Made by a program: the position numbers and the translations under genes
The notes under the pieces: generated by a model
Seen by the model: the letters and a program-made list of their open reading frames with translations, nothing else
What the model was told of the DNA's origin: nothing
Database searches by the model: none
Virus record (IMG/VR): IMGVR_UViG_3300030107_000709
Coordinates: 2,947 to 63,082 of that record
From: a virus
Length of the DNA: 60,136 nt
Reading direction: 5' to 3' (one strand)
Shown here: positions 10,210 to 57,543 of the stretch, piece after piece
Position numbering within the stretch: position 1 is the first letter of the stretch
Layout of the letters: each line of letters opens with the position of its first letter

Positions 10210-13071
10210 ATGGTATCAATATTTCAACCAAGGTTTCCAACACAACCTTCACCTGCAGGAGCTACAGTTGCTACAACTCAGTTTCCTACAGAGTTAGCTC
10301 CTTTTATAAAAGACATTTTAGAAAAAGCTAAAGCACAACAAGTAGGAGCAGCATATCAACCATATACAGGACCACAGCTTGCACAGTTTACAGATGCAGA
10401 AAAAGCAGCTATGGATGCTATGCGACAACAAACTACAGGTCTTGCAGGCACAGATGTAGCACAAGCTACTCCATATTTTACAGGTGCTAAGACTGCAACA
10501 GAAGGATTAGGTCAACAGTTTACAGGAGATGTGGCTCAACAGTTTATGAATCCATATCAACAAGCTGTTGTAGATCAAGCTAAAAGAAAAGCTATAGAAG
10601 ATTATGAACAAGTTACAGCTCCTAAAATTACTGCTCAAGCTATAGCACAACAACCTTTTGGTGGTTCTAGACAAGCTATTGCAGAAGGAATGGCTAGAGA
10701 AGGTTTAGCAGATAGACTTAGTGAAATGCAAGAAAGAGGTTTAGCATCAGCATATGCTTCAGGACAAAAAGCATTTGAACAACAAAAAGCTAGAGAGTTA
10801 CAACAAGCTCAACAGTTAGCACAGTTAGGACAAACTGTACCACAACAAGCATTAAGAGATTTAGCTGTGCAACAACAGTTAGGAGCAGAAGAAAGACAAC
10901 AAGAACAATTAGCATTAGATTTATCTAAAGGACAATTTATGGAAGAAAGAGAATTTCCAACTAGAGCATTACAAGAATACTCTGCTATAGTTAGAGGTTT
11001 TCCATTTCAACCATCTACTTATCAAACATCAACACAGTATCAACCTACACCTTCAATAGCTAATCAGTTATTACAATTAGGTGGAGTTGGTATGGGTGCA
11101 TATACACAGTTTACTGGTAAACCTATGGCTAATCTTTTTGGTATGGGTGGAGCAGCTAAAGGTGGTGGTATTGCAGATGTTATATCTAATCAAATGGGTA
11201 AAAATATGCAAATGCGTTCATTAGGTGATTTTACAGAAGCAGCAAGTGAATTAGAATTACAAAAAAAAGCTCAACAAAGAGAATTAGAAGAATTAGCAAG
11301 AAAAGATTTACAAATACAAGCAGAAGCAGTTGCATTAGATGACCCTGAAGAACCTTTAGAATTTTTAGTAAGTCCAGATGATGAAGAATTTGTTCCTGGG
11401 TTTATGGGATATAATGTAAGAGAAATATCTATGGATGCTGATAGATTAAATGATGCTCAGTTTGAAGAAAAGTATGGTGAAACTAAAACTTTTATGATTG
11501 GTAATATAAATGAACTAGGTTCAGGAAGAGCATTACAACGTATTGATGAAAAAAGATTAGGAGGACTTCCTACTATTTATAATGCAGAAGCTGAGAATGA
11601 ACAAAATCAAGAAATAACAGATTTAAAAAATACAACAATTGGAGGAGACGCTTATACAATAGATACAACAGGCTTAAAAAATAAAATAACTACAGAAGCT
11701 GTGGCTCCTTCAGAAATTGATTTAGAAGGAGAATATAAAGATTTATTTCAAACAATGACTGGAAATCAAAATTTTTTAAATCGTAACCTAAAAGAATCTG
11801 TACCTGAAGCTGCAAAAATTTTAAAGTATGTTGAAGATTTAAAAGAGCCTGAAGACTATGCAGCATATAAAGCAGTTATGGATGACGAGAGTACAGTAGG
11901 AAAAGCCTTTCAACAAAAACAAGAGAAGCTACAAGAAGTATTAGATCCTACTTCAGAATTTAATATTGAAAGAGATAAAACTAGATTAGCTCAAAGAGCT
12001 ACAGCAGAAGGTAGAGGTATGGTAGAAGCAGCTTTAGCTATGGACCCTAGTCAATCTTTTGTACAAAATTTTAGTACACTATTAGGAGGTACTGCAACTG
12101 GATATGGAGCTGCAAGAGATGCATTTGATAGCTATGTTGAACAAGATATGAATGAACAAATACAAGCTAATCAAGGTATTGTAGACTTACAATCAGATAG
12201 AATAAAATTACAAAATGAAACTAAAGATAGAATTCTTGCAGAACAAAGTAATGTATTACAAGCTAAATTAGCTACATTAGGTAAACTTATTGAAAATAAA
12301 AATATTGATTCTGGAATGATAGGTAATTTACTTGGTTTACAAGCAGAGATAAAATTAAAATTACTTGAAAGACAACAACAAGATAAAACAACAGCATTAA
12401 GTGCAGAAGAGTTAAATTTAAAAAGAACAGAAATTTTAAATAACATAGAAAATGCTAAGTTTTTAGCTAAGCAAGAAGCTTGGAAAAATATGATAACACA
12501 TAAATATAATATAGCTGATTTAGTAAATAAACAAGATGAAATTGCTGCTATAGTTCAAAAAGCAGAGATAGAAGCAGGAATAGATAGAAATAATCTTGAT
12601 ACAGAATTTAAAAATACACTAGCTTCATTAGATAGAGCTTTTCAGGTAAGTACAGATGCAGATGGTCAGTTAACTTTTGGAAAGATGAATAATCCTAGAG
12701 ATTCTATGGTTTACATGTTAGCTCAAAGTGATATAATGAGAAGAATATCTTGGAATAAAGCTAATAACAGACCTGCTTATGAGGGTATAGGAGAATTAAC
12801 TTCAGATTATATGGGAACTAAAGAACATGGAATAGTTCCTGGAGCTTTTAAATATTTAGATGAAAATATATTAGCATCAGATGTTGGTAAAAACATAAGA
12901 GATGATTGGAGTAGTTATAATGGAACTATGAGAAATTGGATTACTACTTTACAACAAGATCCAGATAAATATAAGTTAAGTCAAATTGTAAAAGGAAATA
13001 CTCCAGAAGATAAAGATGAAAATTTTAAGAAATTTATGGATGCTATAGCAAATAATACTATAATACTATAA
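10210..13071 (+). CDS. Large internal virion/ejection protein (953 aa)
   Basis: AAGGAGTAAG precedes the ATG. The N-terminal 280 residues are Gln/Ala-rich and helical (FLNPYQQ-type motif FMNPYQQAVVDQAKRKAIEDYEQ, then QPFGGSRQAIAEGMAREG), a signature of internal core or ejected proteins in marine podoviruses. The C-terminal half is long helix and coiled coil (about 600-800). No signal peptide or catalytic motif is visible. With the 504- and 2018-residue neighbours it likely forms the inner core injected with the DNA, analogous in position to T7 gp14-gp16. Confidence 0.6.
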   Translation: MVSIFQPRFPTQPSPAGATVATTQFPTELAPFIKDILEKAKAQQVGAAYQPYTGPQLAQFTDAEKAAMDAMRQQTTGLAGTDVAQATPYFTGAKTATEGLGQQFTGDVAQQFMNPYQQAVVDQAKRKAIEDYEQVTAPKITAQAIAQQPFGGSRQAIAEGMAREGLADRLSEMQERGLASAYASGQKAFEQQKARELQQAQQLAQLGQTVPQQALRDLAVQQQLGAEERQQEQLALDLSKGQFMEEREFPTRALQEYSAIVRGFPFQPSTYQTSTQYQPTPSIANQLLQLGGVGMGAYTQFTGKPMANLFGMGGAAKGGGIADVISNQMGKNMQMRSLGDFTEAASELELQKKAQQRELEELARKDLQIQAEAVALDDPEEPLEFLVSPDDEEFVPGFMGYNVREISMDADRLNDAQFEEKYGETKTFMIGNINELGSGRALQRIDEKRLGGLPTIYNAEAENEQNQEITDLKNTTIGGDAYTIDTTGLKNKITTEAVAPSEIDLEGEYKDLFQTMTGNQNFLNRNLKESVPEAAKILKYVEDLKEPEDYAAYKAVMDDESTVGKAFQQKQEKLQEVLDPTSEFNIERDKTRLAQRATAEGRGMVEAALAMDPSQSFVQNFSTLLGGTATGYGAARDAFDSYVEQDMNEQIQANQGIVDLQSDRIKLQNETKDRILAEQSNVLQAKLATLGKLIENKNIDSGMIGNLLGLQAEIKLKLLERQQQDKTTALSAEELNLKRTEILNNIENAKFLAKQEAWKNMITHKYNIADLVNKQDEIAAIVQKAEIEAGIDRNNLDTEFKNTLASLDRAFQVSTDADGQLTFGKMNNPRDSMVYMLAQSDIMRRISWNKANNRPAYEGIGELTSDYMGTKEHGIVPGAFKYLDENILASDVGKNIRDDWSSYNGTMRNWITTLQQDPDKYKLSQIVKGNTPEDKDENFKKFMDAIANNTIIL

Positions 13072-13075: not shown

Positions 13076-16000
13076 ATGACAGATAATAATAATAATATTT
13101 TAAATAGACAAACTATTGAAGACGATTATAATCTTTTATTTAAAAGAATGGATGCAGATTATTTAATTCCTGATGAAAAAGAAAAAGAAGAAATTAAAAA
13201 AGATCCGTTTAAACTAAATATACAAGGAGATTATCAAAAACTTTTTGATCGTATGAATTTAGATAAATCTACTGTATCTACAGAAGATGTTACTACTACA
13301 CCTATACCTAATACAACTACTACACCTATACCTGATACAACTACTACATCTATTATACAAAAACCTCCTCCAAGAGTTCTTCCTGATGCTATAAAAAACT
13401 TTGATATAGATTCTTATGACTGGGATGTTACTGTACAAGAAAAAGAACCAGAAGAAGATAGAACTCAAACAGAAGAGGATATGAGAAAGGATAAGAAGTG
13501 GATAAAAAATATTCGTACAATTTATAACTTTCAAAATCCTGATAATCCTTGGAGTGAAAAAGATGGAACAGATAGAGACTTAGCTACTTGGGGTTTAAAT
13601 AGAATGAGTAGATTAGGACATAACTTTACTAATATAGGAATGACTGCTGCTACAATAAAAAATATGCCTGAAGATGTACAAAGAGCATGGATACAATCTA
13701 TATCACAGTATGAACCTTCTGCTTGGTCTTGGCGTGGATTTTTTAAAGGTCTTGGTTGGTCAATAGCAGATGTACCTACTGCTTTATCTTTTGGAACATT
13801 TGCATTAGCTAAAGTTTTAGGAGGTAGAGCTGCAAGTGTATTAACAAAACTTAGTTTTAGAGAAACTTTAAAAAAAGAATTAGCAAAAAAAATAGCTGCT
13901 AAAAAAGGTAAAAAAGCTTTAACAACAACTGAAGTAAAAGAAGCACAAAAAATTGCAAGAAAAATAACTAGACCTTATCAGTATGGAGCAAGTGGATTAA
14001 GTGCTGGTGCATATGGTGGTATTTTTGATATGATGTATCAAAATTTTAAAGAAGATGTATCTAAAGATTTACCTGAAGAAGAACAATATAAGTATAATAA
14101 TATAAGTACTTTAATAAATACTGGATTAGCAACAAGTATAGGATTAGCTATTCCTTTTGCAGGAAGAAGTATAGGTAGCAAACTTTTTGATGATAAAGCT
14201 GCACAAAGAATTGTAGATGAAGAAGAATATATAATAGATACTCTTAGAGAGATAGGAAAAGGAGAAGAAACATCTTCTAAAAATACTGATTTTATAAGTA
14301 ATCTAACTAGAGATGATATTAAAGAATTATCTTCTAATCAAGTACTACCTGAAAGAAATAAAAAAGGAGAGATGATAAAAGGTGAAGATAAACCACATAA
14401 ATTATTTGAACAAGTATTAGAAAAACAATTTAAAACTGGAAAAAATGCAGGTAAATATAAAGGTAAAGATATTAAAGCTTTATCTTGGGGTCCTGGACAA
14501 CACATTGAAAAAACTATTAAAACAGATAGAGGTAATATAATAGATGATGGAGGAAAAGCTTTAGGTAAAGATGGTAAACCTACAACAAATAAAGATAAAC
14601 AAGTTCAAATACCTTATAATGATGTACCTGAAAGAAAGCAAGTTCAAAAAAGTATAGATAAAGTTTTTAATCAACAAACTGATCCCCCTAAGAAAAAATT
14701 TATACAAGGAGAAAAAGTTAATCTTCCTAATAAAAAAGAAGGAATAGTTGTTGAAGTAGATAATAAAACAAAATTAACTAAAGTAGAAGATATGGATGGC
14801 AATACATATAATGTAGAGACTGGTAAATTATTAGACTTAAATCAACCAGTTAAAGAACAATTAACACTTGGTTTTGATACTATTAAGCCTTCTTATAAGT
14901 TATATGATTTAGAAGAGGTTAGAGAAAATGCTCCTGAAGGTACATTTGTAGATGAATCTTATTTAGGAAAAGGAGATCATGATGCTATATTAGCTGCTAA
15001 TTGGTTAGGTCAATTACCTGATACAAAAGCTAAAGGAGAAATAGAAAGAATTGCAGATACTTTAAATAATGAAGGTAGCCTTGTAATTAATACTGGTAAT
15101 AAAAAATCTGTTTTAATGAGAGATAAAAGTGAATTTGTAACAGAACTACCTAAAGAATTACGTGATGGAAAAACAAGAGATGTTAAAGGTAAAACAGGTA
15201 GATTTACAGAAAAAGCTAAAGTACATACTAAAGATGGAGTTGATGGTTTTCTTATTGAAAAATATAAAACCTTAGGTATTTCTGATGAAGCTCTTGAAAA
15301 AACATTAAAGACTAATTTTAAAAATGTTATTAAAGATGGAAATATTTTTGTTGCTAAAAATAAAAGAAAAAAAGCATTAAACGAATCTAATCCAGCAAAT
15401 ATAAAAAAGAATGTAAAAACAAAAAATAAACCTATAGCTGTTATACCTAAAGATAAAAGACAAATTAGTTGGTTTGATGAATGGTTTAGTCAATCTGCAG
15501 GATTACCTGCTGAAATTCATGCATCTCGTATAGCTAAAAATGCTATAGGAGAAATAGTAAAAAGATCTGTAGCTAGAAAAGTAAATCTATTTAATAGACA
15601 AAAAGAAAAAATAAAAACAATAAATAACAAAAGTTATAAGGAAATGACAGATCAAGAGAAAGAATATTTAGGTTTATTAGCTGATATGATTTTACGAGGA
15701 GGAGGATATAAATTACAAAATCGAGAAGGAAGATTTAATTTATTACAAAAGTATGATGCCTTTAGAATTCAACCTGAACTAGAAACTCACTTTAAAGGAA
15801 TTGATCCTTTTGGTAAGTTGCCTGATGGTTTTATTAAAAATTTAGTAAATATGAGGGATGATATAACTAAAGCTCAAGAGAAAGCTATGAGTGTAGGACT
15901 TATTGAAAAAGGTTCTGATTTACATGTAGCATTTGAAAGAAGCATGGGAACTTTTTCAGATGATTTTGATTTACATTTAAATAGACAATATAGAATAATA

Positions 16001-19000
16001 GATGAACCAGAAAACTGGGCAAAAACTATTGTAGAAAAATTTCCTGAACGTATAGAAAAAGCAAAAATATTTTTTAAAAATGAAATACAATCTGAAAATA
16101 TGTTAACTACAGTTACTCCTGATAATAAAGAAGTAGGCTTTGCTCCTGCATTAATTGTAAGAGAAATTAATGATTTAATAAATTTACGTTTAACTAAAGG
16201 ATACAAAAATGCAGAAAATGGTAAACCTGATCGTAGAATTGGATCTGAAGAAAAAGCTTTAAGATTAGAAAACCGATTAAGAAATGAAAGATTTGGAGGT
16301 TTAGCAGTAACAACACAAATGCCTGTAGATAAATTAAAAATATTAAAAGAAGAATTTTTAGATGATGAAGCAGGAAAATTAGTAAATAGATTTTTAAGAA
16401 AATATACAGATGAAGAAGTATCTGTGCTTAAAGATTTTGGATTTAATCCTAAAGCATTTGATGTAACTGATATAATGTTTTTAAATTTAGATCATTTAAA
16501 ACCAGGAAAAAAAGGAGATAAAATGATATTACCTCCTGATTCTGATACAGGTGCTAGATCTATTTTTTTTAGAAGAAAAAAGATACCTGAAGAAATTAGA
16601 AGTTTAATGGGAGAATATAAAGACCCTGCTTATAATTATGTAAATACATTACTTAAATTAAGACAAAGTATTGAGACATATAAATTTGAAGACCTTGTAG
16701 CTAGAATGGCAACACCTAAAGATAAAGGTGGAATGGGAGTATTACCTAATGCAGTAATTCCTAAAAGACTTATTGGAGGACAACTAGAAGAAGCTAGTCC
16801 AGGATTTAAAAGTTTATCTGAAGCAACAGCTTTACCTAAATATACTCCAGGAATTAGACTTCCTTATAAACCTGATGGAAAAGAAATATATGTTCCTGAT
16901 GTAGTATTTACAGCTATTAAAGATGGTAATCATCATATGAGAGAATATGTTAATCCAGCTATTAAAGGATTAATTATAGCACAAGCTTATAGTAGAATGG
17001 CAGTAACTGCATTAAGACCAGCAGGTTATCCTAGAAACTATTTAGGAGCTATGATTAAATCTATTTCTTCTGGTAATGTTAGTATTGGTGCAGCAAAAGA
17101 AGCTCATAAACTTTTTTCAGCTATTGGTAATTTTGATAATATAGATATGAATAACTTTATTATTCGTCAACAATATTTAGGATTATTAGGACAAAGCACT
17201 AGAGCTGCAGATTTAAGAGCACAGTTTAAAGATGCAGGAGTAGAACCTATTGATTATTTTAGTATAAATAATTTTACAGAAAACTTACCTAAAGGTAAAG
17301 ATACAGCTTGGCTAAGAACAAAACAAGGTGAGCAATGGATAATGGATAGGTATCAATTAATGGATGATGTATGGAGAACCTATAATTTTATTGCAGAAAG
17401 AAAAAGATATAAACCTATTGTTGAAGAAGATTTTAGAACAGGTAATATTGATGGATTACTTGGTTCTAGAAAATTAACAGTTAATGATTTTAATAATGAT
17501 GAAGTAGCTAAATATACTACTAAAAATTTTCCAGGAAAAAAAGTAGGTGATTTAGTTCCTAATGAACCTGAAATAGTTACATTTAGTAATGGATATAAAG
17601 TAGGACTAGCAGCAGATACACTAGGAGATGGTGGTAAAACTATAGAAATATCTAACTTAGATACTTTAGCTGGTAAAAAAGTAAGAGCACATATGGATAA
17701 CTATGCTGAATTATCTAAAGGAATTAAATGGGCAAGAGGACTGCCAATAGCAGACTTTCTAGGATATAAAGCAGAACAAGTACGTACAACAAAAGACATA
17801 TTTAAAACTGCTATTCAAGATATAAAAAGAGGTATTAAGTTACAATCTGATAGTAAAGGTGAATATGGAGGTATGCTTTATATAGCAGGATTAAAAAGAC
17901 TAGGTGCTATTATGGCAGGATTAACTCTTGGTCCATCTTTAGCAGGAACAATGGGATATGTATTCTTACAAAAAAATAAAGAAAATTTTAATCCTGATAT
18001 TATTAGATTAAGTAATGGTGAAAAAATTAAAAACTTTTATTCTAATGCAGAAGGCAGAAATATAGTAGAGGGACCTGAATATGCTTTAGGAACTAATCGT
18101 GTTGCTATTGGTCCTCCAGATAAAGATGGAACATATCCTGTTCTTGACTATGATAGATTAAATCCTTGGGGTCCAATTACAACTAGTATTAGTGCTATAT
18201 TAAATGAATTTTATTTAGATGATGAAACTTTAATGAATAAAATAGATAATGTTGGAGCTGTAGCATTAAAAAAAATATATGAAGAATTGGGACCAACTAT
18301 GGTAGCTAAAGCAGCTTTTAATGCTTTAAATGGTCAAGATGAATTTGGTAAACCAGTAGCAAATCCTAATGATCCTGATTATATAAAAGCTAAAGAAGCT
18401 TTATTATCTGCAGCTAATGTTTTTCTACCAGGATTTATAAGAGATCCTGTAAAAGTATATAAAGCTTTTAAAGAATCACAAGGTAAAGAATCTTTAACTC
18501 CATTTGGAGGATTTAAAAATAATCCTATTATGGCAACTTTAAATGCTTTTGGTTTTGCAGGAACATATAATGAACCTAAAAATTCTTTAAGATTTAAAAT
18601 ACAACCAGAGATTAAAGAGATTAAAAGTGCAAGTCAAAGATATTTAAGTGAGTTAGGTAAATATACTAGATTAGAACCAGATACTATTCTTGAACAATAT
18701 GAAAAAGCATTACAACAAGATATGAATGCTAAGAATAGTTTAATATTAAAGTTTATGGCAGCAAATGCAACAGGTTTAACTAAAAAACAAATACAAGAAA
18801 GTATTACTAAAGGTGAAGAACAACCTTCATTAATGGATAAAAATTTAAAACATATACTAAGTAAACAAGGGTATCCTATAAGTTATCAAGTACCTAAATC
18901 TTTAAATTATCAAAATAAAGGTATTATGACAAAGTTAAGAGTTATAGCTAAACAACAACAACCGACTGTAAATTATAAACAATCACAAATTAATCAAGAT

Positions 19001-19132
19001 TATGAGTATATTAAAAGTCAAATGAAATTAATACATGATAAATATAATAATAATAAAAATTATTATGAATACTATAAGAATGCTGTACCAGCAGATGATA
19101 ATAGTTTTGACTGGGATTTAAGATTATTTTAA
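13076..19132 (+). CDS. Giant internal virion/ejection protein (2018 aa)
   Basis: The largest gene of the window, four bases after the previous stop. It is mostly charged and helical. Features seen: a Thr/Pro linker near residues 73-100; Gly/Ala-rich hydrophobic stretches near 230-260 and 340-370 (SLGLAIPFAGRS-like); a long Lys/Glu-rich middle; and a hydrophobic segment near 1600-1630 (GAIMAGLTLGPSLAGTMGYVFL). I found no convincing lytic transglycosylase, protease or polymerase motif. Size and position match the giant ejection proteins of N4-, T7- and HMO-2011-like phages. Function is by context only. Confidence 0.6.
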   Translation: MTDNNNNILNRQTIEDDYNLLFKRMDADYLIPDEKEKEEIKKDPFKLNIQGDYQKLFDRMNLDKSTVSTEDVTTTPIPNTTTTPIPDTTTTSIIQKPPPRVLPDAIKNFDIDSYDWDVTVQEKEPEEDRTQTEEDMRKDKKWIKNIRTIYNFQNPDNPWSEKDGTDRDLATWGLNRMSRLGHNFTNIGMTAATIKNMPEDVQRAWIQSISQYEPSAWSWRGFFKGLGWSIADVPTALSFGTFALAKVLGGRAASVLTKLSFRETLKKELAKKIAAKKGKKALTTTEVKEAQKIARKITRPYQYGASGLSAGAYGGIFDMMYQNFKEDVSKDLPEEEQYKYNNISTLINTGLATSIGLAIPFAGRSIGSKLFDDKAAQRIVDEEEYIIDTLREIGKGEETSSKNTDFISNLTRDDIKELSSNQVLPERNKKGEMIKGEDKPHKLFEQVLEKQFKTGKNAGKYKGKDIKALSWGPGQHIEKTIKTDRGNIIDDGGKALGKDGKPTTNKDKQVQIPYNDVPERKQVQKSIDKVFNQQTDPPKKKFIQGEKVNLPNKKEGIVVEVDNKTKLTKVEDMDGNTYNVETGKLLDLNQPVKEQLTLGFDTIKPSYKLYDLEEVRENAPEGTFVDESYLGKGDHDAILAANWLGQLPDTKAKGEIERIADTLNNEGSLVINTGNKKSVLMRDKSEFVTELPKELRDGKTRDVKGKTGRFTEKAKVHTKDGVDGFLIEKYKTLGISDEALEKTLKTNFKNVIKDGNIFVAKNKRKKALNESNPANIKKNVKTKNKPIAVIPKDKRQISWFDEWFSQSAGLPAEIHASRIAKNAIGEIVKRSVARKVNLFNRQKEKIKTINNKSYKEMTDQEKEYLGLLADMILRGGGYKLQNREGRFNLLQKYDAFRIQPELETHFKGIDPFGKLPDGFIKNLVNMRDDITKAQEKAMSVGLIEKGSDLHVAFERSMGTFSDDFDLHLNRQYRIIDEPENWAKTIVEKFPERIEKAKIFFKNEIQSENMLTTVTPDNKEVGFAPALIVREINDLINLRLTKGYKNAENGKPDRRIGSEEKALRLENRLRNERFGGLAVTTQMPVDKLKILKEEFLDDEAGKLVNRFLRKYTDEEVSVLKDFGFNPKAFDVTDIMFLNLDHLKPGKKGDKMILPPDSDTGARSIFFRRKKIPEEIRSLMGEYKDPAYNYVNTLLKLRQSIETYKFEDLVARMATPKDKGGMGVLPNAVIPKRLIGGQLEEASPGFKSLSEATALPKYTPGIRLPYKPDGKEIYVPDVVFTAIKDGNHHMREYVNPAIKGLIIAQAYSRMAVTALRPAGYPRNYLGAMIKSISSGNVSIGAAKEAHKLFSAIGNFDNIDMNNFIIRQQYLGLLGQSTRAADLRAQFKDAGVEPIDYFSINNFTENLPKGKDTAWLRTKQGEQWIMDRYQLMDDVWRTYNFIAERKRYKPIVEEDFRTGNIDGLLGSRKLTVNDFNNDEVAKYTTKNFPGKKVGDLVPNEPEIVTFSNGYKVGLAADTLGDGGKTIEISNLDTLAGKKVRAHMDNYAELSKGIKWARGLPIADFLGYKAEQVRTTKDIFKTAIQDIKRGIKLQSDSKGEYGGMLYIAGLKRLGAIMAGLTLGPSLAGTMGYVFLQKNKENFNPDIIRLSNGEKIKNFYSNAEGRNIVEGPEYALGTNRVAIGPPDKDGTYPVLDYDRLNPWGPITTSISAILNEFYLDDETLMNKIDNVGAVALKKIYEELGPTMVAKAAFNALNGQDEFGKPVANPNDPDYIKAKEALLSAANVFLPGFIRDPVKVYKAFKESQGKESLTPFGGFKNNPIMATLNAFGFAGTYNEPKNSLRFKIQPEIKEIKSASQRYLSELGKYTRLEPDTILEQYEKALQQDMNAKNSLILKFMAANATGLTKKQIQESITKGEEQPSLMDKNLKHILSKQGYPISYQVPKSLNYQNKGIMTKLRVIAKQQQPTVNYKQSQINQDYEYIKSQMKLIHDKYNNNKNYYEYYKNAVPADDNSFDWDLRLF
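13291..13350 (+). repeat. Thr/Pro tandem repeat inside the 2018-aa gene
   Basis: About two and a half copies of a 27-base unit encode TTTTPIPN/D. It forms a flexible, uncharged linker between the acidic N-terminal 70 residues and the rest of the giant protein, and is a likely site of copy-number variation. Confidence 0.7.
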
Positions 19133-45726: not shown

Positions 45727-48204
45727 ATGGCAACTGAACGAAATCCCTTTGAACAAATACAACAAGAAATTAATAATGTAATACAACTTCCTGAAAAGCA
45801 ACAGGAAGGAGAACCATCTTTTGAATTAGAACCTGATGGAGGTATTACTGTTGATTTTGCTTCTGAAGAACAGACTGTGGAAATGGGAGCATCTACAGAA
45901 GTTGGTGAATGGTATGGAAACCTTGCAGAAAAATTAGATGACGAAACTCTACAAGAAATAGGAAACAATGTATATGATTCTTATATTGCAGATAAAGATT
46001 CTAGAGCTGAATGGGAATCTATGTTTGAAAGAGGATTTGATTTATTAGGATTAAAGATACAAGATACAACAGAACCATTTGAAGGTGCATGTACAGCAGT
46101 TCATCCTCTCCTTATAGAATCTGCTGTTAAGTTTCAATCAAAAGCATCACAAGAATTATTTCCATCTAAAGGTCCAGTTAAAGCACAGATACTAGGGAAG
46201 GTAACTCCTGAAAAAGAATTACAAGCAAATAGAGTTCAAGAGTTTATGAACTATCAGGTTACACAACAGATGCCTGAATACTTTGACGAGTTTGAAAGAA
46301 TGCTTTTTCATTTACCTTTATTAGGTTCAGCATTTAAAAAAGTATATTATGACGAAACATTAAAACGCCCTGTATCAGAATTTGTTCCTATAGACCAGTT
46401 TTATGTTTCTTACTACGCCAGTAATTTAAGAAAAGCAGAAAGATACACACATGTAATTTATCGTAATCCTTACGACTTATCTAAAGAAATACGTAATGAA
46501 GTATATTTAGATTTAGATTTACCAGAACCAATGAATCCAATGCAAACACCTTTAGCAGAAAAGATGGATACTATTCTTGGTTTATCTCCTAGTTCTGATT
46601 TAGATCCTCAATATGTTTTATTAGAACAACATTGTTATTTAGATATAAAAGATTCAGAAACTGAAGATGGAGAATCCTGTCCATACATTGTAACTATAGA
46701 AGAACAATCAAAAAAAGTTTTAAGTATTAGAAGAAACTATAAATCAAATGACCAAACCAAAACAAAGAATATACATTTTGTTCATTATAGATTTGTTCCA
46801 GGATTTGGTTTTTATGGTTTAGGTCTAATGCATTTCTTAGGAAATATAACAATGACTGCAACAGCAGCTATGAGAAGTTTAGTAGATGCAGGACAGTTTG
46901 CGAACTTACCAGGTGGTTTCAAGGCAAAAGGAGTTCGTATGGTTGGTGACAATGAGCCTATTGCACCTGGTGAGTTTAAAGAAATAGAAGCATTAGGTAC
47001 AGACTTAAATAAAGCAATCGTACCTTTACCTTATAAAGAACCTTCTAATACACTATATCAAATGTTAGGATTTATGACTGCAGCAGGACAAAAATTTGCT
47101 GACAGTACAGAACAGGTAATATCAGATGGTTCTAATTATGGACCAGTAGGAACTACAATGGCATTACTTGAAGCATCAAGTAAATTTTTTAGTGCGATAC
47201 ATAAACGATTACATAAATCACAACAAGATGAATTTAAAATTTTAGCACAAATAGATTATGATTATCTACCAGCAGAATATCCTTATGATGTTCCTATGGC
47301 AGAAAGAAATATTTTTAAACAAGACTTTGATGGTAAAGTAGATGTTGTTCCTGTAAGTGATCCTAATATTCCTAGTAATGCACATAGATTGATGTTATCA
47401 CAAATGGTATTACAAATGGCACAGCAATCACCACCAGGAATGTTTAACTTAGAAGCATTAAATAGAACAATATTAAATGCAGCTAATATTCCTAATGTAG
47501 ATGAAATACTACCACCTAAAATACAACCTAAAGAATTAGATCCTGTATCAGATATTATGGCAGCATCTAAGGGAATGCCTATTGCAGCATTTCCAGGACA
47601 GGATCATGATTCACACATACAAGTTAAGATGGCATATTTAAATGATCCAGAGAATGGAGCTAATCCTGTTATGGCAAAACTACAACCTATCTTAGCTGCT
47701 AATATACAAGAACATTCTGTAATGAAATATCAAGAACAGATTAATGGTATGACACAACAAAAGTTACAGCAAAATGTTTCACCACAAGATGCACAGAATC
47801 CTGCAGTAGTACAAGGTGCTATGGCAGAAGCTGCTAAAGAAGTTGCTAATGCAAATGCAGCTATGGGTATAGCAAAATCTCCAGAGCAACAAATGGTAGC
47901 ACTAGAAGAACAGAAAGTAAAACTAGAACAACAAAAACTACAAATGAAAGCTATGCAAGATAATGCAAAAGCAATACTAGATGCACAAAAACTTGAAATG
48001 GAACAAAGTGAAATATTATTAAAAGTAGCTGATCAACAACAAACAAAACAATTTAAAGAACAAAAAGCACAAGCAGATAGATTAAGTAAACAACAAATGA
48101 AAGCATTAGAAGCTTTAGTTAATATGTCTTTAGAAGATAATAAAATTGAAAGTAAAGAAAAAATGAAAGCTGCTGATGTATTATCTAAAATGAGTCAAGA
48201 ATAA
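45727..48204 (+). CDS. Portal protein (825 aa)
   Basis: Follows terL by 27 bases. Typical large portal of podovirus/marine phage type: WESMFERGFDLLGLKIQ..PFEGACTAVHPLLIESAVKFQSKASQELFPSKGPVKAQILG, the FVHYRFVPGFGFYGLGLMHFLGNITMTATAAMRSLVDAGQFANLPGGFK stem and wing region, and DSTEQVISDGSNYGPVGTTMALLE. The last 120 or so residues are a Gln/Lys-rich coiled coil, probably the barrel inside the capsid. Forms the dodecameric vertex through which DNA enters. Confidence 0.88.
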   Translation: MATERNPFEQIQQEINNVIQLPEKQQEGEPSFELEPDGGITVDFASEEQTVEMGASTEVGEWYGNLAEKLDDETLQEIGNNVYDSYIADKDSRAEWESMFERGFDLLGLKIQDTTEPFEGACTAVHPLLIESAVKFQSKASQELFPSKGPVKAQILGKVTPEKELQANRVQEFMNYQVTQQMPEYFDEFERMLFHLPLLGSAFKKVYYDETLKRPVSEFVPIDQFYVSYYASNLRKAERYTHVIYRNPYDLSKEIRNEVYLDLDLPEPMNPMQTPLAEKMDTILGLSPSSDLDPQYVLLEQHCYLDIKDSETEDGESCPYIVTIEEQSKKVLSIRRNYKSNDQTKTKNIHFVHYRFVPGFGFYGLGLMHFLGNITMTATAAMRSLVDAGQFANLPGGFKAKGVRMVGDNEPIAPGEFKEIEALGTDLNKAIVPLPYKEPSNTLYQMLGFMTAAGQKFADSTEQVISDGSNYGPVGTTMALLEASSKFFSAIHKRLHKSQQDEFKILAQIDYDYLPAEYPYDVPMAERNIFKQDFDGKVDVVPVSDPNIPSNAHRLMLSQMVLQMAQQSPPGMFNLEALNRTILNAANIPNVDEILPPKIQPKELDPVSDIMAASKGMPIAAFPGQDHDSHIQVKMAYLNDPENGANPVMAKLQPILAANIQEHSVMKYQEQINGMTQQKLQQNVSPQDAQNPAVVQGAMAEAAKEVANANAAMGIAKSPEQQMVALEEQKVKLEQQKLQMKAMQDNAKAILDAQKLEMEQSEILLKVADQQQTKQFKEQKAQADRLSKQQMKALEALVNMSLEDNKIESKEKMKAADVLSKMSQE

Positions 48205-51033: not shown

Positions 51034-51981
51034 ATGGCTATAAATAGAGCAAGTATTGCTAAAGAACTCCTTCCAGGATTGAATTCAATTTTTGGTACGG
51101 AGTATGGTGAGGTAAATGACGAACATACACCTCTTTATGAAATAGAAAATTCAGATAGAGCTTTTGAAGAAGAAGTTTTATTTACTGGATTTGGCACTGC
51201 ACCTGTTAAAGGTGAAGGTGCTGCTGTAACTTTTGATGACGCACAAGAGAGTTATGTAGCTCGTTACGATAACGAAACAGTTGCATTAGCTTTTGCTGTG
51301 ACTGAAGAAGCTATGGAAGATAACTTATATGATACTTTTGCAAAGTTAAGAGCAAAAGGATTAGCTAGAGCTATGGCAAATACAAAGCAGGTAAAAGCTG
51401 CTGCAATATTTAACAATGGCTTTAGTACTACAGCTTCCAATTTAATTGGAGATGGTGCAGCATTTTTTAGTAATAGTCATCCAACAGTTCAAGATGGAAA
51501 CCAAGATAACCTGTTAACAGCAGCTGCATTATCTGAAGCTGCTATCGAGACTGCTGTGATTGATATACAAAAAATGAAAGATGATAGAGGAATTTTAATT
51601 GGTGCACAAGTTGCTTCATTACATATTCCTGTTGACTTATCTTTTACAGCAACTCAAATCTTACAAAGTGAGTATTCAACAACTATTGGTGTGAATCCAA
51701 CAACTGCTGGTAATGGTGCAACTAATGTTAATGACATTAATGCTATTAGAAGCATGGGAGTTATACCTGGTGGTTCTTTTGTAAACAGAAGATTCACAAG
51801 TACAACTGCTTACTTTTTTAGAACTGATGTTCCTAATGGTGCAAAGATGTTTAATAGAACACCTTTACAAACCAAGATGGAACCAGATTTTGACACTGGT
51901 AACTTAAGATTTAAAGCTCGAGAAAGATATTCTTTTGGAGTATCTGACTGGAGAAGTTACTTCGGAAACGCAGGTGCTTAA
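51034..51981 (+). CDS. Major capsid protein (315 aa)
   Basis: HK97-fold capsid protein of the Mu gpT-like/marine podovirus type: AINRASIAKELLPGLNSIFGTEYGEVNDEHTPLYEIENSDRAFEEEVLFTGFGTAPVKGEGAAV (N-arm and E-loop region), AFFSNSHPT, and KARERYSFGVSDWRSYFGNAGA at the end. AAAGGAG precedes the ATG. Very likely the most abundant virion protein. A GC-rich hairpin follows its stop. Confidence 0.9.
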   Translation: MAINRASIAKELLPGLNSIFGTEYGEVNDEHTPLYEIENSDRAFEEEVLFTGFGTAPVKGEGAAVTFDDAQESYVARYDNETVALAFAVTEEAMEDNLYDTFAKLRAKGLARAMANTKQVKAAAIFNNGFSTTASNLIGDGAAFFSNSHPTVQDGNQDNLLTAAALSEAAIETAVIDIQKMKDDRGILIGAQVASLHIPVDLSFTATQILQSEYSTTIGVNPTTAGNGATNVNDINAIRSMGVIPGGSFVNRRFTSTTAYFFRTDVPNGAKMFNRTPLQTKMEPDFDTGNLRFKARERYSFGVSDWRSYFGNAGA

Positions 51982-52035: not shown

Positions 52036-52206
52036 ATGGAAGCTCAAGGAATAACAGCCAGAACAGTATCTGGTCTATTAAAATATCCTAAAAAAGATAC
52101 AAGTGCAAAACCTACAGGACAGGGTTTTGGTAAAGCAAGAAAAGGTCCTGCTGTACAAGGCAAGCAAGAACCTGTAGTTAAGGAGTCAAGTAATAATGGC
52201 AAATAA
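52036..52206 (+). CDS. Small basic protein (56 aa)
   Basis: I choose ATG 52036 because AAGGAG lies six bases upstream and is unobstructed; an in-frame ATG at 52006 lies in the loop of the preceding hairpin and would add ten residues. MEAQGITARTVSGLLKYPKKDTSAKPTGQGFGKARKGPAVQGKQEPVVKE.. is basic and flexible. Overlaps the next gene by 11 bases. Probably a minor head protein; unknown. Confidence 0.5.
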   Translation: MEAQGITARTVSGLLKYPKKDTSAKPTGQGFGKARKGPAVQGKQEPVVKESSNNGK

Positions 52207-52481: not shown

Positions 52482-53162
52482 GTGCCTAATTATGCTTTCT
52501 TAAAGACTGATATAATAAATACAAGTGAGAATGATTCTTCAGAGTTTGAGGAACACATTCCTTACTTTATTGAAAAAGCTGAAATACGTTTAACAAAAGA
52601 TTTAGATGATGTAGGGCTAACTGAGTTTAGCTCTTTTTCTTTTACAGCATCTAATCCTGTTGTTAGTTTACCAGCTGATACTAGAATAGTGCAAAGTGTA
52701 AATTATAAAACAAGTGTTTCATCTAATATAACAACTCTTCTACAAAGACCTTATGAGTATGCTATAGATTACTTTCCTCATGCAAGTACATCTACAGGTA
52801 CTCCTAGATATTACGCAAGAAAAAATCAAACATCTTTATATATAGTACCTACTCCTGCATCTACATTATCAGGAGAAATATCTTATGTGCGTAGACCAAT
52901 AGGTTTAGCCAGTGCTACAGGTACAAGTGTAACTACATCTAATTATTTTAGTGAGTATTGTTATGATGCATTATTTTATGCATGTATGTTAGAAGCAAAT
53001 AGATTTATGAAAAATCCTAATGGTATGCAAATGTATCAAGGTGACTATGTAAATGCAGTAGAAGGATTACGTAATCAAGCAAGAAGGTCAAGACAGGATA
53101 ATATGGAGACTGCACATAATCCAAGTGGTGGTCCTAATGTTTTAGTGAAAGGGAGTAATTAA
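52482..53162 (+). CDS. Head-to-tail adaptor-like protein (226 aa)
   Basis: Start codon GTG. NYAFLKTDIINTSENDSSEFEEHIPYFIEKAEIRLTKDLDDVGLTEFSSFSF.. plus PRYYARKNQTSLYIVPTPASTLSGEISYVRRPIG fit the adaptor family described for phages such as SU10, which joins the portal to the tail. It is the same length as, and similar in architecture to, the gp4-like protein at 58595, suggesting old paralogy. Confidence 0.65.
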   Translation: MPNYAFLKTDIINTSENDSSEFEEHIPYFIEKAEIRLTKDLDDVGLTEFSSFSFTASNPVVSLPADTRIVQSVNYKTSVSSNITTLLQRPYEYAIDYFPHASTSTGTPRYYARKNQTSLYIVPTPASTLSGEISYVRRPIGLASATGTSVTTSNYFSEYCYDALFYACMLEANRFMKNPNGMQMYQGDYVNAVEGLRNQARRSRQDNMETAHNPSGGPNVLVKGSN

Positions 53163-53164
53163 TT

Positions 53165-53413
53165 ATGCCTAAATGGAAAAAACCTAAAGTAAAAGAAATA
53201 ACAGATGAAGTTGATATTAGCGATTTATTTTTTGAAACTTATGATGGAAATATAATACCTTTTGATGAAATGTATGAAGATGATGCAAAAAATTTTGATG
53301 ATATGTATGCTACAGGTGGTATAGTAAAAACTAAAAAGAAAAAGAAAAAAAAGAAAATGAAAAAACCTAGAGGAGTAGGAGTAGCACTTAGAGGTTTTGG
53401 AAAGTGTACATAA
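53165..53413 (+). CDS. Small protein with GG-Lys-rich RGxGxAxRGxG tail (82 aa)
   Basis: An acidic N-terminal half (DEVDISDLFFETYDGNIIPFDEMYEDDAKNFDDMYA) is followed by TGGIVKTKKKKKKKKMKKPRGVGVALRGFGKCT. The basic half closely matches the C-terminus of the 1022-residue protein two genes downstream. The charge-split design suggests one end bound to DNA or capsid. Function unknown. Confidence 0.6.
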   Translation: MPKWKKPKVKEITDEVDISDLFFETYDGNIIPFDEMYEDDAKNFDDMYATGGIVKTKKKKKKKKMKKPRGVGVALRGFGKCT

Positions 53414-53508
53414 TGCCAATTAGTAGAGTTAATATTAAAATGCAATTAACTGATAAGTTAAAAAATAAAAAAGTTAAAAAAAAGAAAAAGAAGAAAGGTA
53501 AAAAATAA
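53413..53508 (+). CDS. Tiny Lys-rich protein (31 aa)
   Basis: MPISRVNIKMQLTDKLKNKKVKKKKKKKGKK. Its ATG overlaps the previous stop (TAATG) and its stop overlaps the next ATG in the same way, arguing for translational coupling of all three. An almost pure polycation in its second half; DNA neutralisation is possible. Confidence 0.5.
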   Translation: MPISRVNIKMQLTDKLKNKKVKKKKKKKGKK

Positions 53509-56500
53509 TGCCAGTCATTAATACAAGAGCATTACATAGAATGATACTTAAAGCAGGTAAACCTGTTTGGGATGCTTTTGATGACTTTAGAAAAGACTCT
53601 AGGAATTATGAGCCTTCAAGTATTAGACCAGAAGAACAGTCTATAAGAAAAGGTACATCTGGTGATCCTGCTTTATTTAAAGATATAACAAAAACTCCTG
53701 TTAGAAAAATTATATCTGGAGGACAAACAGGTGTAGATGAAGGTGGTTTAGCTGCAGGAGAAAAATTAGGATTACAAGTAGGAGGTACAGCTCCTAAAGG
53801 ATATAGAAGAAACAATATAGAAAATGCTGTATTTAGTGATGATAAATTAAAAACAATATTAAAAGAAAGTGATTCTTCTAATTATAATGTACGAACAAAA
53901 CAAAATGTTTTAGATGCTGATGCTACTGTTATCTTTGGTAATACTGAAAGTGCAGGAACAAAAAATACAATAAAATTTTTAAAACAAGCAAAGAAAAAAT
54001 ATATTATAAATCCAACAGAACCAGAACTAACAAGATTTTTAAATACAAATAAAGTTCAAACATTAAATGTTGCTGGTAATAGAGGAACAAAAGAAGGAAT
54101 GAAAGTTGCTAGAGATGCTCAAGAAACTTTGATTGGTGCTATTGGTACAAAAAAAGTACCAGAAGAAAGTAAGTTTTATGAAGTTCCAATAGCTAAAGAA
54201 TTTTCTGAAATAGGTAAAGCAGGTGTAGCACAAAGAAAATATGCAAAAGATGAAATAAGACCTTCTGATTATGTAGATCCAGATAGTGCAGGAGCTTCTA
54301 TAAGTTTACTTCAAAGAAGAAGTGATGAACTAGGAGATCTTGGAGATCAGTTAATAGGAGATGTAGGTATAAAAGGTAAGTATGTAGGAGACCTTTCTAA
54401 ACTAGGTGCTTTAGGTAAAGAAGATGGAAAATTTAAAAAAAGAACTAGAGGAATATTTCAACCTGTAGGAGGAGAAGATTATAACTTACAAGCTTTTAAT
54501 AATTTTGTATATCAAAAATTAATGAAAGCTACAAAGCAAGCTAATGCAAATGCTAAAAAACTACAACGAAAAGGAGTTTTTAGTAAAGATACAACAGAAA
54601 GTATTTTAAAGAATAATAAAAAATTAATAAATTTTTTTAAACCATTTGCAGATAGAAAGAAAACAGAAAGACATGAAATTTATGGTTTACAGGATAAATC
54701 AAAAAATGATCCTACAAACTGGAATGAAACTGTAGGGGCTAGTAATATTATGCCTAGAATGCAGTTAAGTCAATATTTTTTATCTAAAGATTTTGATGAT
54801 ATATTAAAAGGAAAAACAAAATTTCAAGATGACTTGTTTCAATTTTATGATGTAGATCCTGGTAGTTCATTAGGTCCTAAAAAGAAACTAACAGAGTTTG
54901 AACAATATCAAAACTTAATAGATGAACAAAGAGGTATACAAAGAGCAGATAAAACAAAACAAGTACAAGAAAGTAAAAGAGCTTTAGAAAATGTATTAGG
55001 TTCTTTATTAAATATTTCTAAAATGGAAGAAAGAAAAAAATATAAAAAGTTTCCTGTACCTCAAATAACTAAAGAAGGTAAACCTAGAGGAGTTAAACTA
55101 GAAGATATAGCTGTAGGAAAATATAGACAAATTTTTAAAGATCCTCAAACAGCTGAAACAATGAAATCTTTAAAACAACAAATCATGAAGAATCAAGAAA
55201 CAACTCCAACAAAACAAAATTATTTAGATTTAGTTGTACAAAAACTAGCTATGCTTGAAGGTAAAAAAAGAACAGATGACGAAACAGCAAAACTCTATAC
55301 AATGTTACAAGAAAAGCTAGATCCTGTAGGAAGAACAAGAGAAGGTTATCCTAGAACAGAACAAGAGTTAATGTATGCACCACCTATAAGAGAAAAGAAA
55401 ACAGGTAAAGTTAAAACACCAGGAAGATTATATAGAGAAAGAACACCAGATGTATTAAAAGAAATGCAAGAAGATCCTACAGGGAAACAATTAAAAGATG
55501 ATTTAATTTTAGATCCAGACTTTTTAGTTGATGATGCAAATGAACTTGCTGAACAGTCTTTTAAAAAAGAAATGTTTGATGAATCTCCAGAAACAGCTAC
55601 AGCATTATTTTCAGATACACCTGGAGGTGTTCAAGAATTTAAACCTGATGTAGAAGTTGGAAAATTATTACAACTTATTAATACTCCTCAATTATTTAAT
55701 CGTTTATCTGCTAAAGAACAAAAAGAACTTTTAAGTATTAAAGCTGTATATGATGATGCTATGGAAGTTGCTAGACAAAGACAAGAAAAAACACCTAAAG
55801 GAATCTCAGAAGATGCTCTTGAAAAAGAACGTAAACAATTTGCATCACAATATGTTGCAAGTTATTTAATGCCAGAAGCACCAACAGGTTATAAAAAACC
55901 TGAAGAAGTTTTTGAACAAACTCAAGCATTACGAAGAGCTATTGAAAAAGAAACAGATCCTATAGTAAAAGAAAGATTAATACAAGAATTACAAGCTTCA
56001 CAGATTGTTCCAACAGAATCTTTTGGTAGACCTCCTGCACAACAACCTTATATACCAGGATTTGAACCTGTAGGTACAGGTGAAAGAGGACAGCCTACTG
56101 CATCTTTTACATTAGGAAATGTACCAGCACTTGAAGATTTAAGAGTATTTTATGGAAGACCTGCTGCTAAAGATTTAACACCAGAACAAAATCAAAAACT
56201 TATTGAAAGAATAGTTAAATCATATGAAGAAAAAGCAGAAGGACCTAAAAAGAAAGAAACAAAAAAAGAAGCTACAGAAAGAAAAAAGAAAGCAAAAGAA
56301 AGATATAAATTTTTAGAAAAAAAATATAAAGAACAATATGAAAAAGTATTAAAAAATAGAAGTCCTGAAAATATAGATGCATTATTTAAAATAGAAAAAG
56401 AAATGCAAGAGCTTATGGCTGAACAATATAATACAGGTGGATTAGTTAAAGTAAAAAAGAAAAAAAAGTTTATACCTAAAATATTAAAAAATAAAATTAT

Positions 56501-56576
56501 AAAGAAAAAAAATACACAAAGACCATTAGGTGTAGGAGCAGCACTTAGAGGATATGGAGCAGTAAATCATGGCTAA
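53508..56576 (+). CDS. Virion-module protein with SLOG/YpsA-like domain (1022 aa)
   Basis: Residues 66-210 form a SLOG-type Rossmann domain of the putative molybdenum carrier/cpYpsA family: KIISGGQTGVDEGGLAAGEKLGLQVGGTAPKGYR, NVRTKQNVLDADATVIF.., GTKNTIKFL.., TLNVAGNRGTKEGMKVARDAQETL. The GGQTGVD loop and the LNVAGNR strand are intact. The remaining 800 residues are charged, helical and unrecognised, ending NTGGLVKVKKKKKFIPK.. and RPLGVGAALRGYGAVNHG. SLOG domains bind nucleotides or their derivatives. Embedded in a structural operon, the protein may be packaged and injected; that is inference. Confidence 0.7.
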   Translation: MPVINTRALHRMILKAGKPVWDAFDDFRKDSRNYEPSSIRPEEQSIRKGTSGDPALFKDITKTPVRKIISGGQTGVDEGGLAAGEKLGLQVGGTAPKGYRRNNIENAVFSDDKLKTILKESDSSNYNVRTKQNVLDADATVIFGNTESAGTKNTIKFLKQAKKKYIINPTEPELTRFLNTNKVQTLNVAGNRGTKEGMKVARDAQETLIGAIGTKKVPEESKFYEVPIAKEFSEIGKAGVAQRKYAKDEIRPSDYVDPDSAGASISLLQRRSDELGDLGDQLIGDVGIKGKYVGDLSKLGALGKEDGKFKKRTRGIFQPVGGEDYNLQAFNNFVYQKLMKATKQANANAKKLQRKGVFSKDTTESILKNNKKLINFFKPFADRKKTERHEIYGLQDKSKNDPTNWNETVGASNIMPRMQLSQYFLSKDFDDILKGKTKFQDDLFQFYDVDPGSSLGPKKKLTEFEQYQNLIDEQRGIQRADKTKQVQESKRALENVLGSLLNISKMEERKKYKKFPVPQITKEGKPRGVKLEDIAVGKYRQIFKDPQTAETMKSLKQQIMKNQETTPTKQNYLDLVVQKLAMLEGKKRTDDETAKLYTMLQEKLDPVGRTREGYPRTEQELMYAPPIREKKTGKVKTPGRLYRERTPDVLKEMQEDPTGKQLKDDLILDPDFLVDDANELAEQSFKKEMFDESPETATALFSDTPGGVQEFKPDVEVGKLLQLINTPQLFNRLSAKEQKELLSIKAVYDDAMEVARQRQEKTPKGISEDALEKERKQFASQYVASYLMPEAPTGYKKPEEVFEQTQALRRAIEKETDPIVKERLIQELQASQIVPTESFGRPPAQQPYIPGFEPVGTGERGQPTASFTLGNVPALEDLRVFYGRPAAKDLTPEQNQKLIERIVKSYEEKAEGPKKKETKKEATERKKKAKERYKFLEKKYKEQYEKVLKNRSPENIDALFKIEKEMQELMAEQYNTGGLVKVKKKKKFIPKILKNKIIKKKNTQRPLGVGAALRGYGAVNHG

Positions 56577-56865
56577 AAGAAAAATAAAAGGAAAAGGAAT
56601 GAAAGGCATGACTATTGGTGGTGGTCATAAACGCCCTACTAAAAGTGGTGCAGGTCTTACTAAAGCAGGAGTAGCTAAATATAGAAGACAAAATCCTGGT
56701 AGTAAATTAAAAACAGCAGTAACTGAAAAAAAACCAACAGGTAAAAGAGCTTCAAGAAGAAAGAGTTATTGTGCTAGAAGTGCAGGACAAATGAAAAAGT
56801 TTCCTAAAGCAGCAAAGAACCCCAACTCAAGATTACGACAAGCGAGAAGGAGATGGAGGTGTTAG
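56569..56865 (+). CDS. Small Arg/Lys-rich conserved phage protein (98 aa)
   Basis: MAKRKIKGKGMKGMTIGGGHKRPTKSGAGLTKAGVAKYRRQNPGSKLKTAVTEKKPTGKRASRRKSYCARSAGQMKKFPKAAKNPNSRLRQARRRWRC. The GAGLTxxGVxKYRRxNPGSKLKTAVT..RRKSxCARSxGQM..RLRxARRRWxC pattern recurs in many marine phages (an unnamed domain family). Very basic with two conserved Cys; probably DNA-binding within the virion. It overlaps the end of the 1022-residue gene by eight bases. Confidence 0.7.
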   Translation: MAKRKIKGKGMKGMTIGGGHKRPTKSGAGLTKAGVAKYRRQNPGSKLKTAVTEKKPTGKRASRRKSYCARSAGQMKKFPKAAKNPNSRLRQARRRWRC

Positions 56866-57543
56866 TTGTCATATTTAATAAGCAATATTCCACATTTCAA
56901 ATGTTGGGTAAGAAAAGAGTTTACGCATAACCATATAAAATATCATGGTGAACATTTACATGGTTTAGCGATTGCAGTTAATACAATACCAGACAGATGT
57001 CTAAGTTTTCAAGTTGTATTTACTGGCATACAAGAAGAAGAGAATACAGTAGGTGGTGCAATGTGGGCACGTCTTCCAATCACAAGTTTGATTGCAGATG
57101 AAGTTTTAGAAAAAATGCCAGAAAGAATGGATACTCATTTAGCACAACCTTGGGATTGTTCTTCTAGAGGTCACTCAGTAATAGTGATGGATAGAATAAG
57201 TTCTAGTCCTTGGCATTGTAAAATAGGTGGAGAGTTTTATAAAGGTAGATATATGTTTACAGTTGATTATACAGATAGTTATATAAGTGATGACCCTGCA
57301 CAACATAAGCAAAGTCATGTACTACAATTAACAGATGCTGGTAAGTGGACTGGTAATATTGTAGCACTACCTAATAATAGAGTTAGAGTAACTAATCCTG
57401 CATTATGGATAGCTGGTAAAGGTGCACCAGATTTTGCACCAAGTCAATACATACATTCTGCAGAAATACATGATAGTTATACAGATCCAAATGTAACATT
57501 TAATAATCTTTATAAGGAGAAAACTAATGATGAAAAAAGCTAA
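56866..57543 (+). CDS. Conserved marine-phage structural-module protein, TTG start (225 aa)
   Basis: The start is TTG, chosen because GGAGATGGAGG lies just upstream and directly abuts the previous stop. Sequence blocks FKCWVRKEFTHNH..HGLAIAVNTIPDRCLSFQVVFTG..GGAMWARLPITSL..THLAQPWDCSSRGHSVIVMDR..DPAQHKQSHVLQLTDAGKWTGNIVALPNNRVRVTNPALW are highly conserved among marine podoviruses that I recall, without known function. Beta-rich; several His, Cys and Asp could form a metal site. Confidence 0.65.
   Translation: MSYLISNIPHFKCWVRKEFTHNHIKYHGEHLHGLAIAVNTIPDRCLSFQVVFTGIQEEENTVGGAMWARLPITSLIADEVLEKMPERMDTHLAQPWDCSSRGHSVIVMDRISSSPWHCKIGGEFYKGRYMFTVDYTDSYISDDPAQHKQSHVLQLTDAGKWTGNIVALPNNRVRVTNPALWIAGKGAPDFAPSQYIHSAEIHDSYTDPNVTFNNLYKEKTNDEKS

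What the first reader, a model, noticed from the sequence alone, without database searches (positions are those of the whole stretch)
53508..54140. SLOG/YpsA-like nucleotide-binding domain embedded in a phage morphogenesis gene
Residues 66-210 of a 1022-aa protein carry an intact putative-molybdenum-carrier/cpYpsA-type SLOG domain (GGQTGVD loop, RT.NV.DADATVIF, TLNVAGNR). SLOG domains sense or process nucleotide-derived ligands and appear in bacterial conflict systems. Finding one fused to an 800-residue helical protein between capsid and tail genes suggests a protein delivered with the virion that could bind or degrade a host signalling nucleotide, or modify a cofactor, on entry. I know of no described function for this arrangement.
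Basis: partly seen in the sequence, partly recalled or inferred. Interest (0 to 1): 0.65.

Follow-up and report, generated by a model that had tools for sequence, protein, structure and literature searches.

The report
SLOG domain in tagged phage cargo

Summary
Residues 68-207 of the 1022-aa ORF 53508-56576 match cpYpsA (PF12694, E 1.6e-23), and the domain folds confidently (pLDDT 94; only close PDB match 3imk). All 12 columns invariant in 46 phage homologues are kept. The idea of a virion-delivered SLOG is supported by indirect evidence. Viral YpsA-like SLOGs as counter-defence, and packaged NAD/ADPr-processing domains, are already published predictions (PMC9503650).

What is new lies around the domain. 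(1) The gene occupies a hypervariable slot next to the head genes of HTVC023P-type phages. Slot proteins share a short N-head and a ~50-residue C-terminal tag ending GVGAALRGYG. The tag motif lies 3-9 residues before a stop in 119 of 120 occurrences. (2) SLOG is an exchangeable module: 65% identical copies sit at a different place in otherwise unrelated slot proteins, and most relatives lack it. (3) The slot gene evolves near neutrality (dN/dS about 0.7-1.5) beside constrained head genes (0.02-0.38). (4) Tagged proteins are almost cysteine-free (0.3 per 1000, against 6.1 in other ORFs of the same contigs), as are known large ejected proteins of T7, P22 and N4. SLOGs embedded in large ORFs also lack cysteine (0.4 against 13 in standalone SLOGs).

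Packaging, ejection and ligand remain untested.

The parts
53508..56576 (+). Slot protein P0001, 1022 aa: N-head, SLOG, long Lys-rich helical/disordered middle, C-terminal tag; 0 cysteines, pI 9.5
53508..53627 (+). N-head (residues 1-40, 'INTRALHRMILKAGKPVWDAFDDF'), similar in slot proteins with otherwise different bodies; helix
53703..54143 (+). cpYpsA-type SLOG domain, residues 66-212
   Evidence: Pfam 68-207 E 1.6e-23; model pLDDT 94; 3imk
54156..56417 (+). Variable middle (residues 217-970); residues 217-625 distantly related (23%) to the SLOG-less slot proteins L013/L288/L310/L347/L005
   Evidence: full-length model low confidence
56433..56573 (+). C-terminal tag (residues 976-1022): GGLV..KKKKKFIPKILKNK...RPLGVGAALRGYGAV
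53165..53413 (+). 82-aa companion that is little more than the same tag (GGIVKTKKKKKKKKMKKPRGVGVALRGFG); precedes the slot gene in several relatives
56569..56865 (+). DUF6321 protein (98 aa, very basic), constant downstream flank of the slot
52482..53162 (+). SU10-type adaptor, constant upstream flank of the slot
51034..51981 (+). Major capsid protein
45727..48204 (+). Portal protein, 43% identical to portals of HTVC027P, 023Pt_psg01 and DSL-LC04
10210..13071 (+). 953-aa canonical DNA-ejection protein (phrog_4287), 0 cysteines: the ordinary ejection role is taken by another gene
13076..19132 (+). 2018-aa protein, 0 cysteines, likely second large ejection protein
   Evidence: role inferred

Best explanation
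The gene is a variable cargo slot of an HTVC023P-type marine phage. Its product is recruited into the head during assembly through the conserved C-terminal tag (perhaps helped by the N-head), leaves the virion with the DNA, and acts in the newly infected cell. In this phage the exchangeable payload includes a cpYpsA-type SLOG domain that binds, and perhaps cleaves, a nucleotide-derived host molecule (an NAD/ADP-ribose-type defence signal is the favourite), protecting the phage in the first minutes. Shown: the domain, its fold and conserved loops; the shared terminal tag; modular exchange of SLOG; fast evolution of the slot; absence of cysteine. Inferred: packaging, ejection, ligand and counter-defence.
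For: SLOG with conserved loops. The tag is a C-terminal module: 119 of 120 pattern matches lie 3-9 residues before a stop, one runs off a contig; it sits on 47 sequence clusters, and 100 of 114 tag contigs carry recognisable homologues of this virion's genes. At the same slot, SLOG-bearing and SLOG-less bodies share both ends. The slot gene has dN/dS 0.68-0.78 across whole genes and up to about 1.5 in parts, against 0.02-0.38 for flanking genes. Tag carriers have 0.32 Cys/1000 and 96% are Cys-free, against 6.07 and 35% for untagged ORFs on the same contigs, with methionine unchanged. T7 gp15 and gp16, P22 gp7, gp20 and gp16, and N4 vRNAP hold 0 Cys in 6874 aa, against 7-12/1000 in other proteins of those phages; Cys absence in N4 vRNAP has been linked to cell entry (PMC2784036). 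SLOGs in ORFs of 800 aa or more have 0.39 Cys/1000 against 13.0 in shorter ORFs. Precedent for one conserved capsid-targeting tag on diverse anti-restriction proteins: T4 internal proteins (PMC3012670). The published prediction for viral SLOGs is PMC9503650.
Against: No virion proteomics of any member was found. Scaffolds and some capsid proteins of T7, P22 and N4 are also Cys-free, so the sign marks virion-internal life, not ejection as such; tagged proteins are also poor in W, H, F and Y. The phylogenetically independent test of embedded versus Cys-free is underpowered (about 2-0 on starred branches). The SLOG ligand is unknown. The SLOG of L357 and L358 has very low dS, so its high identity there reflects recent recombination, not proven purifying selection. 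No second enzymatic domain was found in P0001.
Confidence: 0.5

Rival explanations
1. Virion-internal structural protein: the slot product is a basic, helical core or DNA-condensing head protein held by the tag; the SLOG domain is a folded passenger with no role in the host.
For: pI 9.3-9.7 and 10-14% Lys; largely helix/disorder in the model; Cys-free like scaffolds; SLOG absent in most homologous slots.
Against: The body is not conserved while both ends are, which is odd for a structural part. The SLOG keeps all 12 invariant residues and recurs in a second architecture at a different place. A canonical DNA-ejection protein is present elsewhere.
Confidence: 0.25
2. Not packaged: a late-expressed intracellular host-control or nucleotide-metabolism protein.
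For: Standalone SLOGs are common in phages and lie in non-structural regions, e.g. Maribacter phage Molly.
Against: Standalone SLOGs are Cys-rich whereas this one and other embedded ones are Cys-free; location in the head module; shared tag.
Confidence: 0.12
3. Sensor-gated effector: SLOG senses a nucleotide in the host and switches an activity located in the rest of the protein.
For: SLOG fusions to nucleic-acid-acting domains are proposed as sensor-activated systems in phages (PMC9503650).
Against: No effector domain was recognised in P0001 or in L357; P0001 and L357 share SLOG but not the rest of the body.
Confidence: 0.1
4. Chimeric assembly or chance similarity.
For: SLOG is absent from most close relatives.
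Against: Independent contigs L002, L357 and L358 carry the same fusion type; E 1.6e-23 and confident fold.
Confidence: 0.01

Closest known systems
cpYpsA SLOG family (PF12694; 3imk)
   Same: Sequence, fold, conserved loops
   Different: Here a Cys-free insert in a large tagged phage protein; the family is uncharacterised biochemically as far as I know
Phage T4 internal proteins with capsid-targeting sequence (IPI/IPII/IPIII)
   Same: Very diverse bodies in the head module, one conserved terminal tag, basic; T4 IPI* counters a host restriction enzyme (PMC3012670)
   Different: Tag here is C-terminal, ~50 residues and unrelated in sequence; bodies far larger; no prohead protease recognised among the head-module ORFs scanned; packaging not shown
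P1 DarB capsid targeting
   Same: Large defence-related protein directed to the head by a terminal segment (PMC9024508)
   Different: The segment of DarB that targets is reported as N-terminal; no sequence relation tested
Polyvalent proteins of phages (PMC5512222)
   Same: Large protein encoded among virion genes, proposed to be injected; cpYpsA also occurs in giant phage ORFs with DUF4326 and LPD38
   Different: P0001 has only one recognisable domain
Large ejection proteins T7 gp15/gp16, P22 gp7/gp16/gp20, N4 vRNAP
   Same: Cysteine-free
   Different: No sequence relation; the window has its own ejection-protein candidate elsewhere
Viral YpsA-like SLOGs predicted to act on cADPr-type signals (PMC9503650)
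   Same: Clade and proposed role
   Different: Described there as typically standalone; here embedded and tagged

Membership tests
cpYpsA (PF12694) | Profile score above curated cut-off | tested here: met
   83.5-88.1 bits against 26.2
cpYpsA (PF12694) | Fold of the solved member | tested here: met
   pLDDT 94; 3imk E 3.5e-13, TM 0.78
cpYpsA (PF12694) | Conserved loops (GGQTG, RT..N, NVAGN) | tested here: met
   all 12 invariant columns of 46 homologues kept
cpYpsA (PF12694) | Ligand binding or catalysis | not testable with these tools
   needs biochemistry
T4-type CTS-tagged internal proteins (as a way of working) | One conserved terminal tag on diverse bodies | tested here: met
T4-type CTS-tagged internal proteins (as a family) | N-terminal CTS | tested here: not met
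   the recurrent tag is C-terminal; an N-head is shared only among the large slot proteins
T4-type CTS-tagged internal proteins (as a family) | Cleavage by a prohead protease | tested here: inconclusive
   no protease domain found by Pfam in the head-module ORFs scanned; PHROG matches of the capsid protein include head-protease fusions
T4-type CTS-tagged internal proteins (as a family) | Present in the virion | not testable with these tools
   needs proteomics
Polyvalent proteins | Two or more disparate domains in one chain | tested here: not met
   only cpYpsA found in P0001
Polyvalent proteins | Encoded among virion genes | tested here: met
Ejected virion proteins | Absence of cysteine (correlate, also seen in scaffolds) | tested here: met
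   0 Cys in 1022 aa; controls
Ejected virion proteins | Found in the host after infection | not testable with these tools
   needs experiment

The most novel reading that the evidence does not exclude
HTVC023P-type marine phages have their own C-terminal capsid-targeting tag and a dedicated slot in which payloads (SLOG, LysM and many unknown bodies) are exchanged by recombination. Loss of all cysteines marks the injected versions of host-directed domains, so that cysteine content alone separates ejected from intracellular SLOGs.
Probability: 0.45. Interest if true: 0.8.

Novelty: new variant of a known kind. Interest (0 to 1): 0.6.

Why it matters
HTVC023P-type phages are described as among the most abundant phages in the ocean (PMC9599517), and their host-interaction proteins are almost all unnamed. 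A recognisable C-terminal tag and slot would let one list candidate injected proteins across thousands of genomes, as the T4 CTS did for coliphages, and would offer a delivery tag to engineer. The cysteine rule is a cheap, testable predictor of which phage domains travel in the virion, and it ties an orphan SLOG family to the first minutes of infection.

Tried and rejected
A single-sequence search with the whole protein found only one near-identical contig, so relatives were found by gene order and by the tag. tblastn of the tag against phage isolates gave only chance-level Pseudomonas phage hits or nothing. High SLOG identity between L357 and L358 (93% against 75-80% elsewhere) was first read as purifying selection; dS showed recent recombination instead. 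Sulphur economy as the cause of Cys loss was rejected because methionine is not depleted in tag carriers or in whole giant ORFs. The full-length structure is too poor for a fold search. A standalone SLOG elsewhere in 26 related phage records was not found (positive control). A motif literature search found nothing relevant. No metagenome-collection scan was available.

Full report
The window is part of a 63,082-bp IMG/VR virus record. Its late genes resemble the HTVC023P type of marine podoviruses: the portal is 41-43% identical to portals of Pelagibacter phages HTVC023P and HTVC027P, 023Pt_psg01 and DSL-LC04, with GroES, capsid, SU10-type adaptor and DUF6321 genes in order. The host is not resolved.

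The observation. The 1022-aa ORF 53508-56576 contains a cpYpsA-type SLOG domain at residues 68-207 (Pfam E 1.6e-23; 88 bits). AlphaFold2 with 46 phage homologues folds it at pLDDT 94, and the only strong PDB match is 3imk, the solved member of that family. All 12 columns invariant over 46 homologues are kept. The arginine that often follows GGQTGxD is glutamate here, but that position varies in the family.

The surroundings. In relatives whose flanking genes are 75-99% identical, the gene between the adaptor (often followed by a 77-90-aa tag protein) and DUF6321 differs from phage to phage: 1022 aa with SLOG here, 881-1031 aa without SLOG in L013, L288, L328, L347 and L310, 563-668 aa in L008, L009, L354 and L293, and 824-858 aa with SLOG in L357 and L358. 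All complete members end in a ~50-residue module GG(L/V)..(K)n..(I/F)PKI(I/L).NK...KP.GVG..LRG(Y/F/W)G. Most begin with a related ~30-residue N-head (P0001 against L357: 48% over 27 residues, E 0.003-0.004; P0001 against L013: 38% over 42 residues, E 7e-4).

SLOG is a module of this slot. The nearest SLOG relatives of P0001 in 2.9 million viral contigs are in L357 and L358 (65% identity, starred clade with support 100). There SLOG lies at residues 304-451 instead of 65-212, and apart from the two ends and SLOG the proteins are unrelated to P0001. Their C-terminal halves instead resemble SLOG-less slot proteins. PF12694 was not found in 26 related phage records, with the window record as positive control.

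The tag. A degenerate DNA pattern for GVGAALRGYG gave 116 stretches in viral contigs. In 119 of 120 matches the next stop codon follows 3-9 residues later; the remaining one runs off a contig. 159 distinct carriers fall into 47 clusters after removal of the tag, and 100 of 114 tag contigs hold recognisable homologues of this virion's genes. Some carriers from the same slot have a LysM domain (8 of 81; L311 residues 149-193, L355 residues 191-234), which fits contact with the cell wall. Related C-termini occur in isolate HTVC023P: gp32 ends RGVGAAIRGHKFIGVK and gp51 ends RGGGAAVRGMGFKGVF. I found no description of the motif.

Evolution. In the same genome pairs the slot gene has dN/dS of 0.68-0.78 (parts of L357/L358 0.8-1.6), while portal, GroES, scaffold candidate, capsid, adaptor, DUF6321 and the phrog_3704 gene have 0.02-0.38. 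This is relaxed or diversifying evolution of the payload; positive selection is not demonstrated.

Cysteine. P0001 has none in 1022 residues; 13 slot proteins have one in 9450. Tag carriers have 0.32 per 1000 (96% Cys-free) and untagged ORFs on the same contigs 6.07 (35%); Mann-Whitney p 6e-30, not corrected for kinship. As a control, the large proven ejected proteins T7 gp15 and gp16, P22 gp7, gp20 and gp16, and N4 vRNAP have 0 in 6874 residues, while other proteins of these phages have 7-12 per 1000; scaffolds and some capsid proteins are also free of it. For N4 vRNAP the absence has been suggested to matter for entry (PMC2784036). SLOG domains in ORFs of 800 aa or more have 0.39 per 1000 and those in shorter ORFs 13.0. 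Neighbouring giant ORFs on the same contigs are also depleted, ordinary ORFs are not (10.6). On a SLOG tree the embedded state needs 8 changes (at least 4 on starred branches); 30 of 31 embedded and 6 of 42 other SLOGs are Cys-free, two of these six being cut fragments of larger ORFs. The strictly independent test is too small to be significant. Methionine is not depleted in tag carriers, so sulphur saving does not explain it.

Mechanism proposed. The tag takes the protein into the prohead. It is carried on or among the DNA (basic, helical), leaves with the DNA, and SLOG meets a nucleotide-derived ligand in the new host. Viral YpsA-like SLOGs have been predicted to degrade or sense cADPr-type signals, and Macro, NADAR and Nudix domains encoded among virion genes to be packaged (PMC9503650). 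The T4 internal proteins, diverse defence proteins with one conserved capsid-targeting sequence (PMC3012670), are the best functional precedent. I put about 0.7 on virion-internal, about 0.5 on the whole chain.

Limits. No proteomics, no ligand, no host; most statistics are not kinship-corrected; the full-length fold is unresolved.

Noticed in passing
L087-L162 slot region: Other recurrent C-terminal endings occur on slot proteins of relatives: GGKITYRMTGGQVVDNSYD..GGK...HNRLY and KKGGRLKxKK..KRAALRGxRxELRG. They may be further tags of the same system.
   Followed up: no
window 52006-52206: 66-aa ORF after the capsid gene carries TGQGFGKARKGP, a glycine-basic motif conserved in many relatives (GKPTGQGYGAARKGP) and resembling the tag, but internal.
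   Followed up: no
L359-L411, L433: cpYpsA domains recur inside very large phage ORFs (1.5-4 thousand aa), nearly Cys-free, some with DUF4326, LPD38, GNAT or a second SLOG (YAcAr); adjacent giant ORFs are Cys-free too.
   Followed up: partly
window 56866-57543: Conserved gene after DUF6321 matches phrog_3704 labelled ferredoxin, while the gene at the corresponding place in HTVC023P (gp44) is annotated PurM; the two labels conflict and no Pfam family matches the window protein.
   Followed up: no
window 53165-53413 and 56569-56865: phrog_10346 (525 aa) matches the small tag protein (weakly) with profile positions 380-433 and DUF6321 with 434-525, suggesting the two are fused in other phages.
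   Followed up: no
window 13076-19132: 2018-aa ORF with no family match and no cysteine, next to the 953-aa DNA-ejection protein; probably a second ejection protein.
   Followed up: partly
L357:1834-2277 and L358:984-1427: SLOG of this pair has dS 0.02 while the rest of the gene downstream has 0.22: a recent within-gene recombination.
   Followed up: partly
window 21745-43550 (- strand): Early region has Pfam matches to an MptE-like domain, a B12-type ribonucleotide reductase, DNA polymerase A, primase-helicase, DUF932 and a family 8 glycosyltransferase; further small ORFs of the window (strand not resolved) match endonuclease I and HSP20.
   Followed up: no
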